This document shows positions 28,074-62,339 of a stretch of DNA of 64,000 nt, piece after piece (within the stretch, counting starts at the first letter, position 1; every line of letters begins with the position of its first letter). A program made the translations under genes and the position numbers. The DNA is taken from the NCBI GenBank assembly GCA_021731815.1, contig JAKFWO010000026.1, forward strand, positions 1-64,000, in the 5' to 3' direction. Under the pieces are notes generated by a model. The model saw only the letters and a list, made by a program, of their open reading frames with translations. It was not told the DNA's origin and ran no database searches. This DNA is from Hyphomonadaceae bacterium. Lineage in GTDB: Bacteria; Pseudomonadota; Alphaproteobacteria; Caulobacterales; Aquidulcibacteraceae.

Positions 28074-28122
28074 GGAGCGCGTTCAGGCGAAAACCGGACT
28101 CCACTTTTTCTGAAGCCGCTCC
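28074..28122. repeat. alphaproteobacterial palindromic repeat
   Basis: GGAGCG at the left end pairs with CGCTCC at the right, around a core AAAACCGG...CCACTTTTT. The core resembles the widespread alphaproteobacterial intergenic palindrome with AAAACCGG and CCACTTTT words inside GGAGCATGATC arms. A second diverged copy is at 40782-40828. It lies 60 bases before the larger structured element. Confidence 0.7.
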
Positions 28123-28181
28123 AGCTGTGAGCTTTCAGCAGGTTGTACCAGCCGCGCGATCGGCCCGCCGATTTAGCGGCA

Positions 28182-28351
28182 GTGACGTTTCGTCCCACGG
28201 ACGGAGCAACCCTTTGTTCTCATGGAGGCATTTTTGCGCATCGTTTGAGATCGTCAAGGATATACCGCGAAGCGGCGCACCTTCGGTGCGTCCTTGACGA
28301 TCTCAAACGATGCGCTATTATTCTACCATGAAAACAATGTCTTAGCCTAAC
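28182..28351. repeat. dispersed structured element, full copy 1
   Basis: Nested inverted repeats. Outer stem TTGTTCTCATGG (28214-28225) with CCATGAAAACAA (28326-28337); ten unpaired bases on each side; then a perfect 25-bp stem 28236-28260 with 28291-28315 enclosing two small hairpins (CCGC/GCGG and GCAC/GTGC). Left flank has CGTCC/GGACG. The framework matches the copy at 62.1 kb almost base for base, but the 14-bp arm segments 28239-28252 and 28299-28312 differ completely while remaining complementary. It lies between convergent genes. No open frame in it is credible. The rest of 27941-28451 shows only the small palindrome at 28074. Confidence 0.88.
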
Positions 28352-28451
28352 AAATATGCGTCTGGATTCCTGTGTAGATGCTGATTCATTGCAGTTTTTC
28401 CTCGCACTTCCGCGTATCATCGAGCCCGGACAACCTGTTGAAAGCCCACAT

Positions 28452-28904
28452 CTAGCCGCGCTTTGCCTGTGACTGGATGCGTTCGAGCTTGGCGAGTTCC
28501 ACTTCCGCGCGCTGTTCGATGCTGGAGAGCAAGGCGGCGAGCCGCGGATCCTCGTATTCCTCGACCCGGTCGGCCAATGCGCGTTTGAGCCGATGAATGG
28601 CACCGGCGCTGATCCGGCCATTCAGGATGTCGGCCTTGAGCGCATCGAGCCCGTCCAGCAATTCACCCCCGCGATTGACCGCGCGCCGGCGGCGCTCCAG
28701 CGGATTGTCGATTAATTGCAGGGCGAGCAGCGTGTCGACATTGGCCGCAGCGGCGCTGGCCTGGGCGCCGGCGCTTTCGCGGGTGCCGCCTGCGGCCTCG
28801 GCTCCGTCCGGGGAGTCAAGGATCTGGAACCCGTTCTCGCCGGCGCGCCGCACTGCCTTGGTGGGCCTCGCCGGCGGCGGCGGGGCGGTGGGGTCAATTC
28901 GCAT
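28452..28904 (-). CDS. fliX: class II flagellar assembly regulator FliX
   Basis: 150 residues. FliX couples flagellar assembly progress to FlbD/sigma-54-dependent late flagellar transcription in Caulobacter-like bacteria. The family pattern is visible: MRIDP start, proline-rich N-terminal part, LLALQLIDNPLERRRRAVNRGGELLDGLDALKADIL-like helix and the terminal DPRLAALLSSIEQRAEVELAKLE. A CtrA-like box lies 79 bases upstream. Usual neighbours (flgI, flgH, dksA) are absent from this window, so the gene stands alone here. rpoN, whose product acts in the same pathway, is 16 kb away. Confidence 0.88.
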   Translation of the reverse strand: MRIDPTAPPPPARPTKAVRRAGENGFQILDSPDGAEAAGGTRESAGAQASAAAANVDTLLALQLIDNPLERRRRAVNRGGELLDGLDALKADILNGRISAGAIHRLKRALADRVEEYEDPRLAALLSSIEQRAEVELAKLERIQSQAKRG

Positions 28905-48318: not shown

Positions 48319-49671
48319 ATGCAAATCTCGCTCGACCTGCTCCATCTCATCCTCACGCTTGCTTTGGTGGTTCTCGTCGTGTTCGCCTTGCGCTGGCGTC
48401 GCGAAACCAATGCCGCCGGCCTCGCCCGTGCCGGGCTGACCGCCGAGCGTCAGATGGCCGAACTGCGCGAACAGGCGGCCCGTGAGGCCCTGGCCTCGGG
48501 CCTTTCCGAGCGCGATCAGCGGGTGGCCGAGCGTCTCGCCGAGCGTGAATCCGCGTTTGAAAAAGAACGCGCCGCCATCCTCGCCCTCAAAAAGGAGGCC
48601 GAGGAGCGCTTTCAGGCCATGGCGTCAGAGGCGCTCGCCCGCAATAACCGCCAATTCCTGTCGCTGGCCGAGGAAAGTCTGGCGCGGCGGCTGGAAACCG
48701 CGGATGGCGGCTTCAAGGCGCTGATGAGCCCCGTCGAGGACAGTTTCCGCCTGTTTCGCGAGAAGATCAGCGAGATCGAAAAGATCCGTTCCGAGGACCG
48801 CGCCGCCATGGTCGAACAGATGCGCGCGGTGGCCGAACAGATGAAGGACACCCAGGATTCCACGCGCCGGCTGGCTTTCGCGCTCAAGGCCAATCCCAAG
48901 ACGCGCGGCCGCTGGGGTGAGGAGCAATTGCGGAACATCCTTGAATTGTCCGGCCTGTCCAAATTCGCCGATTTCGACGAACAGGCCAGCGCCCGTACCG
49001 AGGAAGGACTGCTGCGCCCGGATGTGCGGGTGCGCCTGCCGGGCGGGCGGATTATCGTCATCGACTCAAAAGTCTCGCTCGATGCCTATCTCGACGGGGT
49101 TGACGCCGTCGACGAAAAGGACCGCGAGGCCGCCTTTGTGCGCCATGCCCGCCAGATCCGCACCCATATGGAGCAATTGGCCAGCAAGCAATATTGGCGA
49201 AATATCGAATCGGCGGTGGATTTCGTGGCCATGTTCGTGCCGGGCGAGAATTTCTTCGCCGCCGCCGCCGAGCGCGATGCCGAATTACTGTCGGCGGGGC
49301 TCGAACGCCGGGTGATGATCGTCACGCCGGTCACGCTGATGGCGCTGCTCAAGGCAGTGTCCTATGGCTGGCGCCAGGAGGAATCGGCGCTCAATGCCCG
49401 CGCCATCGCCGATCTCGGCCAGATGCTCTACGACCGGATGTCCAAAATGGGCGAATTACTGGGCAAGCTCGGGAGCCGGATCGAGGCCAGTGTCGAGGGC
49501 TATAACGAATTGGTCGGCTCGATCGAAACCAAGGTCATGCCGGGAGCGCGCAAATTCCTCGATTATGGCGCGGGCGGCTCGAAGGATCTGCCGGAGACGC
49601 GAGTCATTGAACAATCACCGCGCGCGTTGGCACCGGGCAAGGATCTGTTGCTGACCGCGAGCGGCGAATAA
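48319..49671 (+). CDS. rmuC: DNA recombination protein RmuC
   Basis: 450 residues: N-terminal membrane helix (residues 5-22), a long coiled-coil of Glu/Arg/Ala heptads (about 30-185), then the RmuC nuclease-like core (NPKTRGRWGEEQLRNILELSGL and IIVIDSKVSLDAYLD ... NFFAAAAERDAELLSAGLERRVMIVTPVTLMALL). RmuC limits inversion at short inverted repeats in E. coli, which is of interest in a genome rich in repeats. ATG 48319 is preferred to TTG 48313. It follows the repeat protein by about 50 bases. Confidence 0.92.
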   Translation: MQISLDLLHLILTLALVVLVVFALRWRRETNAAGLARAGLTAERQMAELREQAAREALASGLSERDQRVAERLAERESAFEKERAAILALKKEAEERFQAMASEALARNNRQFLSLAEESLARRLETADGGFKALMSPVEDSFRLFREKISEIEKIRSEDRAAMVEQMRAVAEQMKDTQDSTRRLAFALKANPKTRGRWGEEQLRNILELSGLSKFADFDEQASARTEEGLLRPDVRVRLPGGRIIVIDSKVSLDAYLDGVDAVDEKDREAAFVRHARQIRTHMEQLASKQYWRNIESAVDFVAMFVPGENFFAAAAERDAELLSAGLERRVMIVTPVTLMALLKAVSYGWRQEESALNARAIADLGQMLYDRMSKMGELLGKLGSRIEASVEGYNELVGSIETKVMPGARKFLDYGAGGSKDLPETRVIEQSPRALAPGKDLLLTASGE

Positions 49672-51306: not shown

Positions 51307-51410
51307 GACAGGAAAATGGGCAGGCTGAGCGGGTGCGGTGAAGGCGTTGGGGGTCTTGGGCTGGCGATCATGGCGACTTTGACGGCGATTCGCCAGCCGC
51401 TCTCATTGCC

Positions 51411-51464
51411 ATGTCTCAACAGGGTGTGTCATGTCTCAACAGGGTGTGTCATGCCTCAACCGGG
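51411..51464. repeat. 20-bp tandem repeat, 2.7 units
   Basis: Two identical units beginning ATGTCTCAACAGGG and a third partial, slightly diverged. It lies immediately left of the truncated structured element in the xseA-rnhA gap. Confidence 0.9.
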
Positions 51465-51466
51465 AA

Positions 51467-51549
51467 TTGGCGATTGCGCGACAGCCCGACTGCCCATGCG
51501 AGGTCAATATTCGTCCAACGGACAGGGCAATTCAGTGTTCTCGTGAAAG
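51467..51549. repeat. dispersed structured element, left half only (copy 3)
   Basis: The first 80 bases or so of the 62.1-kb element recur here in degenerate form: GGCGATTGCGCGACAG, then GGTCAAT-TTCGTCCAACGGAC, GGGCAATTCAGTGTTCTCGTGAAA, against GGCGATCGCGCGACAG, AGTCAATTTTCGTCCCGCGGACG, GAGCAATCCATTGTTCTCATGGAAA. The stem arms and right half are absent, so it is a fragment. Confidence 0.7.
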
Positions 51550-51583
51550 CAAAGCCTTGGCGTAACCAAAGCCGGGGGCAGGC

Positions 51584-62030: not shown

Positions 62031-62239
62031 GTTGGCGATCGCGCGACAGTTCGTTCATCCACGCGCAGTCAATTTTCGTCCCGCGGACGGAGCAATCCAT
62101 TGTTCTCATGGAAACATTCTTGCGTTGACCGGCAATGTGTCAAGGCCAGAGCCGCTGCGCGGCGGCCCGAAGGGCCGGCCTTGACACATTTCCGGTCAAC
62201 GCTATCGTTCCACCATGAAAACAATGCCTTAATGTAACA
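62031..62239. repeat. dispersed structured element, full copy 2
   Basis: Outer stem CATTGTTCTCATGG (62098-62111) with CCATGAAAACAATG (62213-62226); ten unpaired bases each side; then GCG + 14-bp arm + GTCAAGG (62122-62145) with CCTTGAC + 14-bp arm + CGC (62179-62202), enclosing two GC-rich hairpins (GCCGC/GCGGC and GGCCC/GGGCC). The arms 62125-62138 and 62186-62199 match each other at 13 of 14 positions but share nothing with the arms of copy 1. It extends left by about 65 bases of sequence shared with copy 3. It lies between convergent prfC and putA. No gene in 62240-62339. Confidence 0.88.
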
Positions 62240-62339
62240 TTCGCCGTGAGCCGTTGCGCCCGCCCGCGACATGGGCAGTGATTCTTGTCGCACATTCGAA
62301 ACATTGCCCGGGCGAAAGCGACATGCTGAGCCTCAACAA

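What the first reader, a model, noticed from the sequence alone, without database searches (positions are those of the whole stretch)
62122..62202. Do the variable arms match other sequences?
Equal-length arms of unrelated sequence in a constant frame resemble a barcode or target-recognising segment. The arms (62125-62138, 28239-28252) might match a target site elsewhere on the chromosome, a phage or a plasmid, as a guide or homing segment would, or they might be random products of arm rewriting.
Basis: inference. Interest (0 to 1): 0.55.

Follow-up and report, generated by a model that had tools for sequence, protein, structure and literature searches.

The report
Variable arms are hairpin stems
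The two variable segments are the matching halves of a DNA hairpin inside a small, multi-copy mobile element; no target was found for them, but they change in step with each other and so may record how bacteria rewrite DNA palindromes.

Summary
The hairpins are real. Window copies 62065-62240 and 28179-28352 share a frame and a T-shaped tip; each carries a 14-bp arm paired with its partner. "Unrelated" fits only this pair (1 of 14 identical): twelve distinct arms from this genome average 0.44 identity against 0.284 +/- 0.014 for shuffled arms (0 of 10,000), so they descend from a common arm. In relative G018, 22 of 31 copies share one arm or near variants.

No targets were found. In the own genome, hits outside elements number 8 for real and 7 for reversed arms, at incomplete sensitivity. 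Window matches equal those of random window 14-mers. Arms fit their own flanks no better than others' (p = 0.37). The viral scan had no power.

Copy 28126-28450 is a MITE with terminal repeats, a 6-bp duplication, and ends shared with short IS481-type transposase remnants. Its core occurs across Alphaproteobacteria. Arm pairs covary (0.668 vs 0.140) without G-U preference; the core is inverted between orthologous Hyphomonas loci. Best reading: a palindrome kept complementary by template switching. Guide function is not supported; in-place rewriting is.

The parts
62065..62124 (+). left frame of copy A (ending TTGTTCTCATGGAAACATTCTTGCG)
   Evidence: 85% identical to 28179-28238; related copies elsewhere in the genome
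62125..62138 (+). left variable arm, copy A (TTGACCGGCAATGT)
   Evidence: pairs with 62186-62199, one mismatch
62139..62185 (+). core GTCAAGG...CCTTGAC with two small hairpins (T-shaped tip), copy A
62186..62199 (+). right variable arm, copy A
62200..62240 (+). right frame of copy A (starting CGCTATCGTTCCACCATGAAAACAATG)
   Evidence: 62200-62239 is 83% identical to 28313-28352
28126..28450 (+). complete 325-bp MITE, copy B
   Evidence: terminal inverted repeats at 28126-28146 and 28430-28450
28120..28125 (+). left copy of target duplication (TCCAGC)
   Evidence: differs by one base from 28451-28456
28451..28456 (+). right copy of target duplication (TCTAGC)
28239..28252 (+). left variable arm, copy B (CATCGTTTGAGATC)
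   Evidence: perfect complement at 28299-28312
28253..28298 (+). core GTCAAGG...CCTTGAC, copy B
28299..28312 (+). right variable arm, copy B
51500..51559 (+). remnant: left frame without the hairpin
   Evidence: 62% identity to the left frame; loss of the hairpin judged by eye from the sequence

Best explanation
The arms are the middle of the stem of a long DNA palindrome with a T-shaped tip. The palindrome sits in the centre of a small non-autonomous transposon (MITE) whose ends match those of an IS481-type element in the same genome. Shown: arms pair, arms of this genome share ancestry, arm pairs covary, and the core between the arms is found in both orientations, also at one orthologous locus. 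Inferred: during replication the strand folds back, the polymerase copies one arm from the other and returns. That keeps the arms complementary, can copy several changes at once and can invert the core. Pairing and probably stem length matter; the arm letters do not encode a target.
For: Covariation 0.668 against 0.140 shuffled over 31 hairpins. Pairs of copies within a genome, inner 16 arm pairs, as two-sided with both paired / one-sided / two-sided not both paired: own 207/39/29, 134-614 MAG 55/7/7, A3_364 MAG 47/11/11, Aquisalinus 23/4/2 (this follows largely from each arm being paired and does not by itself show one-step change). Mismatches show no wobble preference: G-T 9, A-C 11 of 496 cells in A1; 9 and 6 of 465 in G018. 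Orthologous pair L061/L075 (84.6% over 4.5 kb): 4 two-sided changes, three of them adjacent, and 1 one-sided, of 16. Core orientation: own 8 forward, 4 inverted of 12 (L013 weak); G018 long cores 10 one way, 6 the other, 5 unclear of 21; orthologous Hyphomonas loci 2 vs 4. Arms related and shared inside subfamilies. TIR, duplication and IS481-type remnants. Copies that lost the hairpin in part or whole (L005, L016, L022, by eye). Arm homogenisation plus spacer inversion is the published outcome of template switching (PMC8604942, abstract; PMC8794818, passages).
Against: Arm change is uneven. Own-genome pairs with left frames at least 80% identical average 0.855 in frame but 0.551 in arm (14 of 66 pairs), while 22 of 31 G018 copies keep one arm or near variants. 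Simple copying does not explain fast change. Core inversion could come from recombination between the arms, and arm sharing from recombination among copies. Selection on an RNA or on a protein-bound hairpin could also keep pairing. Three Hyphomonas orthologs show more one-sided (6) than two-sided (2) changes. In PMC8794818 compensatory change together with loop inversion was not enriched, and the authors call the evidence for maintenance of short stems circumstantial (passages). Copy A lacks clear terminal repeats. No mutation was watched happening.
Confidence: 0.7

Rival explanations
1. The arms are guide, homing or barcode segments that match target sites in the chromosome, phages or plasmids.
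For: Arms differ among copies in a constant frame. One exact 14-mer match of the L005 arm at window 49535-49548. Against letter-shuffled arms there is a mild excess in the window at up to three mismatches, 207 against 153 +/- 23, reversed arms 120; against dinucleotide shuffles 206 against 167 +/- 20, 5 of 200 as high.
Against: The excess vanishes against 12 random 14-mers of the window itself: 209 +/- 51 at up to three mismatches, and at least one exact match in 41 of 200 sets. 8 real vs 7 reversed hits outside elements. The exact match lies in a 452-aa reading frame. Flank test p = 0.37. Arms shared by copies at different places. No shared context in viral matches.
Confidence: 0.04
2. The hairpin is a structured RNA, for example in 3' untranslated regions, and selection on RNA pairing keeps the arms complementary.
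For: Strong covariation. Elements lie often between convergent genes: 11 of 18 classified, against 6 of 27 gaps in the window, by a simple codon-usage gene finder. Other hairpin repeats are transcribed in 3' UTRs (PMC5082802, passages).
Against: G-T and A-C mismatches equally rare, whereas an RNA tolerates G-U; the core lies in either orientation; no Rfam family at gathering score in the window or in 12 loci.
Confidence: 0.17
3. A protein, such as a transposase, binds the folded hairpin at the constant TTGCG and GTCAAGG blocks, and the arm is a spacer whose length but not sequence is constrained.
For: Blocks constant on either side of the arm and a usual length of 14; the core recurs across genera and frames; in Bradyrhizobium it lies about 0.3 kb after an IS110-type transposase gene.
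Against: No binding protein identified; core conservation across genera is partly built in by the search pattern. Compatible with the best explanation rather than exclusive of it.
Confidence: 0.3
4. A new arm is made at each transposition event.
For: L001 and L002 have left frames 92% and right frames 83% identical but arms only 50% identical.
Against: 22 of 31 G018 copies at different places share one arm or near variants; L006, L007, L016 and L018 share an arm family at different places; change is seen at a fixed orthologous locus.
Confidence: 0.05

Closest known systems
IS481-family MITEs
   Same: Terminal inverted repeats shared with IS481-type transposase remnants in the same genome; 6-bp target duplication containing CTAG or one change from it; at 325 bp too short to encode a transposase.
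   Different: Carries a central palindrome of about 25 bp with a T-shaped tip whose core also occurs in quite different frames in other genera. I recall no described MITE with this core; the paper searches named in Tried and rejected showed none.
Template-switch mutation at quasi-palindromes (PMC8604942 abstract; PMC8794818 passages)
   Same: Arms alike, several paired changes together, spacer inverted.
   Different: Reported there for yeast coding genes and for RNA genes; here in a dispersed bacterial repeat with many paralogs and some orthologs.
REP elements, including CGTC-tagged REPs common in Alphaproteobacteria (PMC3733652, passages)
   Same: Short palindromic repeats found in Alphaproteobacteria.
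   Different: CGTC REPs have 8-9 bp stems and 4-5 base loops and no associated transposase; here about 25 bp and a two-hairpin tip, inside a longer element with TIRs shared with IS481-type remnants.
Br-REP1/Br-REP2 of Bradyrhizobium (PMC5082802, passages)
   Same: Intergenic repeats with several palindromes, in Alphaproteobacteria.
   Different: The consensus sequences printed in the passages seen do not contain this core.
AAV inverted terminal repeat (recalled, no call)
   Same: T-shaped palindrome with flip and flop orientations of the tip.
   Different: Viral genome end with a replication role; no relation claimed.

Membership tests
MITE of the IS481 type | terminal inverted repeats | tested here: met
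   TGTGGGCTTTCAACAGGTTGT at both ends of the copies on C6 (window B), C9 and C18, up to 3 mismatches; 11 matches in the genome, 0 for the reversed pattern
MITE of the IS481 type | target duplication (NCTAGN for IS481, recalled) | tested here: met
   3 of 3 copies with both ends: TCTAGC/TCTAGC, GCTAGT/GCTAGT, TCCAGC/TCTAGC (one mismatch). A fourth full-length copy, L018, has degenerate ends and no clear duplication by eye
MITE of the IS481 type | same ends on a transposase gene in the genome | tested here: met
   repeat with 2 and 3 mismatches in front of IS481-type fragments in L207 and L211: NF033577 E 2.5e-10 and 6.7e-22 (40 and 78 bits, cut-off 224 for the whole protein); PF13011 36.6 and 34.8 bits, above its cut-off 22.2; reading frames of 98 and 161 aa
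MITE of the IS481 type | mobilised in trans | not testable with these tools
   needs a transposition assay
MITE of the IS481 type | copy A (62065-62240) also has clear ends | tested here: inconclusive
   only a degenerate left end by eye
Template-switch signature | arms changed together | tested here: met
   three Hyphomonas orthologs are an exception (2 two-sided, 6 one-sided)
Template-switch signature | spacer inversion in place | tested here: met
   loci syntenic on both sides: L059, L063 forward, L064, L072 inverted; L062 (about 230 bp aligned) and L066 (one flank) also inverted; recombination not excluded
CGTC REP | 8-9 bp stem, 4-5 base loop | tested here: not met
   about 25-bp stem with two-hairpin tip
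Guide or homing RNA (such as an IS110 bridge RNA) | variable segment matches target DNA | tested here: not met
   own-genome search found only 8 of 12 arms at their own places, plasmids not searched with arms
Integron attC site | R boxes and unpaired extrahelical bases (recalled) | not tested
   considered only by eye; stems are nearly perfect

The most novel reading that the evidence does not exclude
The T-shaped core with its arms is a portable palindrome module, carried by unrelated mobile frames across Alphaproteobacteria (IS481-type MITE ends here, beside an IS110-type gene in Bradyrhizobium, other frames in G018 and Hyphomicrobiales). A dedicated process acting on the folded tip flips the core and rewrites both arms together, so that arm sequence can change much faster than the frame while pairing is kept.
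Probability: 0.12. Interest if true: 0.75.

Novelty: new variant of a known kind. Interest (0 to 1): 0.45.

Why it matters
How paired stems stay paired while their sequence changes is an old question. Here many paralogs and some orthologs of one palindrome show paired arm changes and core inversions side by side, so the rate and step order of template switching in bacteria could be measured. It also warns against reading variable hairpin arms as guides.

Tried and rejected
Guide or homing reading: tested and dropped. Frame in relatives: 0 of 40 relatives match window 62065-62240 at E <= 1e-6, so no sister copy of these loci was available. An exact pattern of part of the left frame in viral contigs: none. 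The whole copy A in phage records: none; in plasmids: only 27% of it, the core, in 4 Bradyrhizobium elkanii records. Core 28250-28301 in plasmids: none. Rfam at gathering score: none in the window or in 12 loci. Model R1 in relatives: 13 of 41 genomes including the own; by eye the G035 and G007 matches are another hairpin, and those of G009, G010 and G022 are uncertain. Gene-based explanations were not pursued, since most copies lie between genes (of 23 copies, 18 classified, 4 unclassifiable, 1 overlapping a predicted gene).

Core orientation of the short G018 cores (5 and 2, 3 unclear of 10) was dropped from the argument, because both strands score alike for several of them.

Paper searches for an earlier description of this element; none seen in their listings, which cover only the held library.

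Full report
What is there. Two copies of a palindromic repeat lie at 62065-62240 and 28179-28352, with a remnant of the left frame at 51500-51559. In each the order is left frame, 14-bp arm, core GTCAAGG...CCTTGAC holding two small hairpins, complementary arm, right frame. As single-stranded DNA both fold into a stem with a T-shaped tip. A search of the own genome with copy A gave 43 matches at E <= 10, down to chance ones, and a covariance model gave 9 full hairpins at E < 1e-12 plus degenerate ones.

The arms are related. Twelve distinct arms picked by eye from the 23 copies that I printed (the 11 left out are named in the observation check) have mean pairwise identity 0.438, against 0.284 +/- 0.014 when letters are shuffled, 0 of 10,000 as high; without the first position 0.408 against 0.287. 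Copies L006, L007, L016 and L018 belong to one arm family; L007 has two changes in its left arm only, and L006 has both in both arms, as if one arm had been copied into the other, although recombination among copies could also do this. In relative G018 I took 31 copies from the rows; one search shows several more that I did not take. Of the 31, 22 carry the arm GCGCCCTAGGTTTTT or near variants and 9 carry others.

Do the arms match targets? In the own genome, 12 arms and their reversals were searched together. Twelve hits are the elements themselves. Of the rest, 8 cover at least 13 bases of a real arm and 7 of a reversed arm. The search found only 8 of 12 arms at their own places (40 of 48 candidates were scored), so it is not complete. 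In the window, outside the elements, 1 exact match was seen against 0.017 expected from letter shuffles; at up to two mismatches 18 against 13.2 +/- 4.5, at up to three 207 against 153 +/- 23, reversed arms 120. With dinucleotide shuffles the last is 206 against 167 +/- 20, 5 of 200 as high. Against sets of 12 random 14-mers taken from the window itself the arms are ordinary: 209 +/- 51 at up to three mismatches, and an exact match in 41 of 200 sets. The exact match, window 49535-49548, lies inside a 452-aa reading frame. In three other genomes 11 of 12 arms were found at their own elements (self judged by contig number and position); one further match below E 1 lies in a home genome (G043 C37, 15 of 17 arm bases, E 0.23), while the same arm hits a foreign genome at E 0.06 and reversed arms gave two matches below E 1. 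Best matches of 29 arms to their own flanks sum to 295, permuted 293.5 +/- 3.2, p = 0.37. Plasmids were tested only with the whole element and with one core, not with arms.

What the element is. Copy B is a 325-bp element, 28126-28450, with terminal inverted repeats and a 6-bp duplication with one mismatch; two further complete copies have perfect duplications containing CTAG. A fourth, L018, has degenerate ends. The same terminal repeat precedes short IS481-type transposase reading frames at two other places, which resemble ISRel2-like elements of Rhizobium plasmids (68.5-70.5% over 91% of the L211 fragment in the rows listed). That IS481 prefers NCTAGN is recalled. Copies lie often between convergent genes: 11 of 18 classified against 6 of 27 gaps in the window, by a simple codon-usage gene finder. 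Copy A lies between a release factor 3 gene and an aldehyde dehydrogenase gene, copy B between an M48 peptidase gene and fliX.

How wide it is. A pattern of the core alone found 39 stretches in genome contigs, in Bradyrhizobium, Hyphomicrobiales, Xanthobacteraceae, Aquisalinus, Hyphomonas or Hyphomonadaceae, and Thermopetrobacter records, with two records labelled Sulfopaludibacter that align with the Hyphomonas loci and look mis-binned. The pattern fixed the core but not the arms. Of the 39, 13 are Bradyrhizobium with imperfect arms, one is cut off at the arm (L066) and one pairs for only 8 bases (L048); the other 24 have complementary arms of about 16-19 bp with 0 to 5 mismatches (counted by eye). 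Frames differ between groups.

How it changes. Over 31 aligned hairpins the arm pairs covary strongly: score 0.668 against 0.140 in shuffles and about 0.1 when slid. G-T and A-C mismatches are equally rare (9 and 11 of 496 cells), which suggests a DNA-level rather than an RNA-level process. Two-sided paired differences exceed one-sided ones in four genomes, though that follows largely from each arm being paired. At an orthologous locus in Hyphomicrobiales MAGs (L061, L075) four of sixteen arm pairs changed on both sides and one on one side. Hyphomonas loci L059, L063, L064 and L072 are syntenic on both sides over 1.4-2.6 kb; the core is forward in L059 and L063 and inverted in L064 and L072. 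L062 (about 230 bp aligned) and L066 (one flank) are also inverted. In the own genome 8 of 12 cores are forward and 4 inverted; the L013 call is weak (5 vs 6 mismatches). In G018 long cores lie 10 one way and 6 the other, 5 unclear of 21. Arm homogenisation with spacer inversion is what template switching between inverted repeats gives (PMC8604942, abstract; PMC8794818, passages, where compensatory change together with loop inversion was not enriched). What remains unexplained is the tempo: arms of some close copies differ far more than their left frames, yet are nearly constant in most G018 copies.

Verdict. The arms are stem segments of a palindrome in a MITE, not guides as far as tested. 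The mechanism of joint change is most likely template switching; a structural or protein-binding constraint on the stem may act as well.

Noticed in passing
G018 contigs C7 and C8 (loci L120-L150): In relative G018, 30 of the 31 copies taken lie on two contigs of 536 and 450 kb in a genome of about 2.6 Mb; a DNA search adds one on C4 and weak ones on C6 (candidates only partly scored).
   Followed up: partly
L045:2712-4241: In Bradyrhizobium the hairpin lies about 0.3 kb downstream of an IS110-family transposase gene (PF02371, E 7.6e-15) in a repeated unit of about 3 kb. IS110 elements are known to target structured repeats (recalled).
   Followed up: partly
L208:1500-1920: One B-type copy is interrupted inside its palindrome by an inserted sequence that looks like an IS3-type element (family not tested).
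   Followed up: no
L006:1321-1431 and similar: A second intergenic repeat of roughly 110 bp (GAGCATTTTCAAGGAAATCC...) adjoins several of the elements.
   Followed up: no
window 51400-51460: Tandem copies of TGTCATGTCTCAACAGGGTG, resembling the element's end, beside the remnant at 51500.
   Followed up: no
L044, L048, L061, L050: In several genomes a second long hairpin lies beside the T-tipped one, conserved or variable by genome.
   Followed up: no
L103, L105: A different hairpin (CCTCATCCTGAGC...GTCGAAGGATGA) is picked up by the model in two relatives.
   Followed up: no
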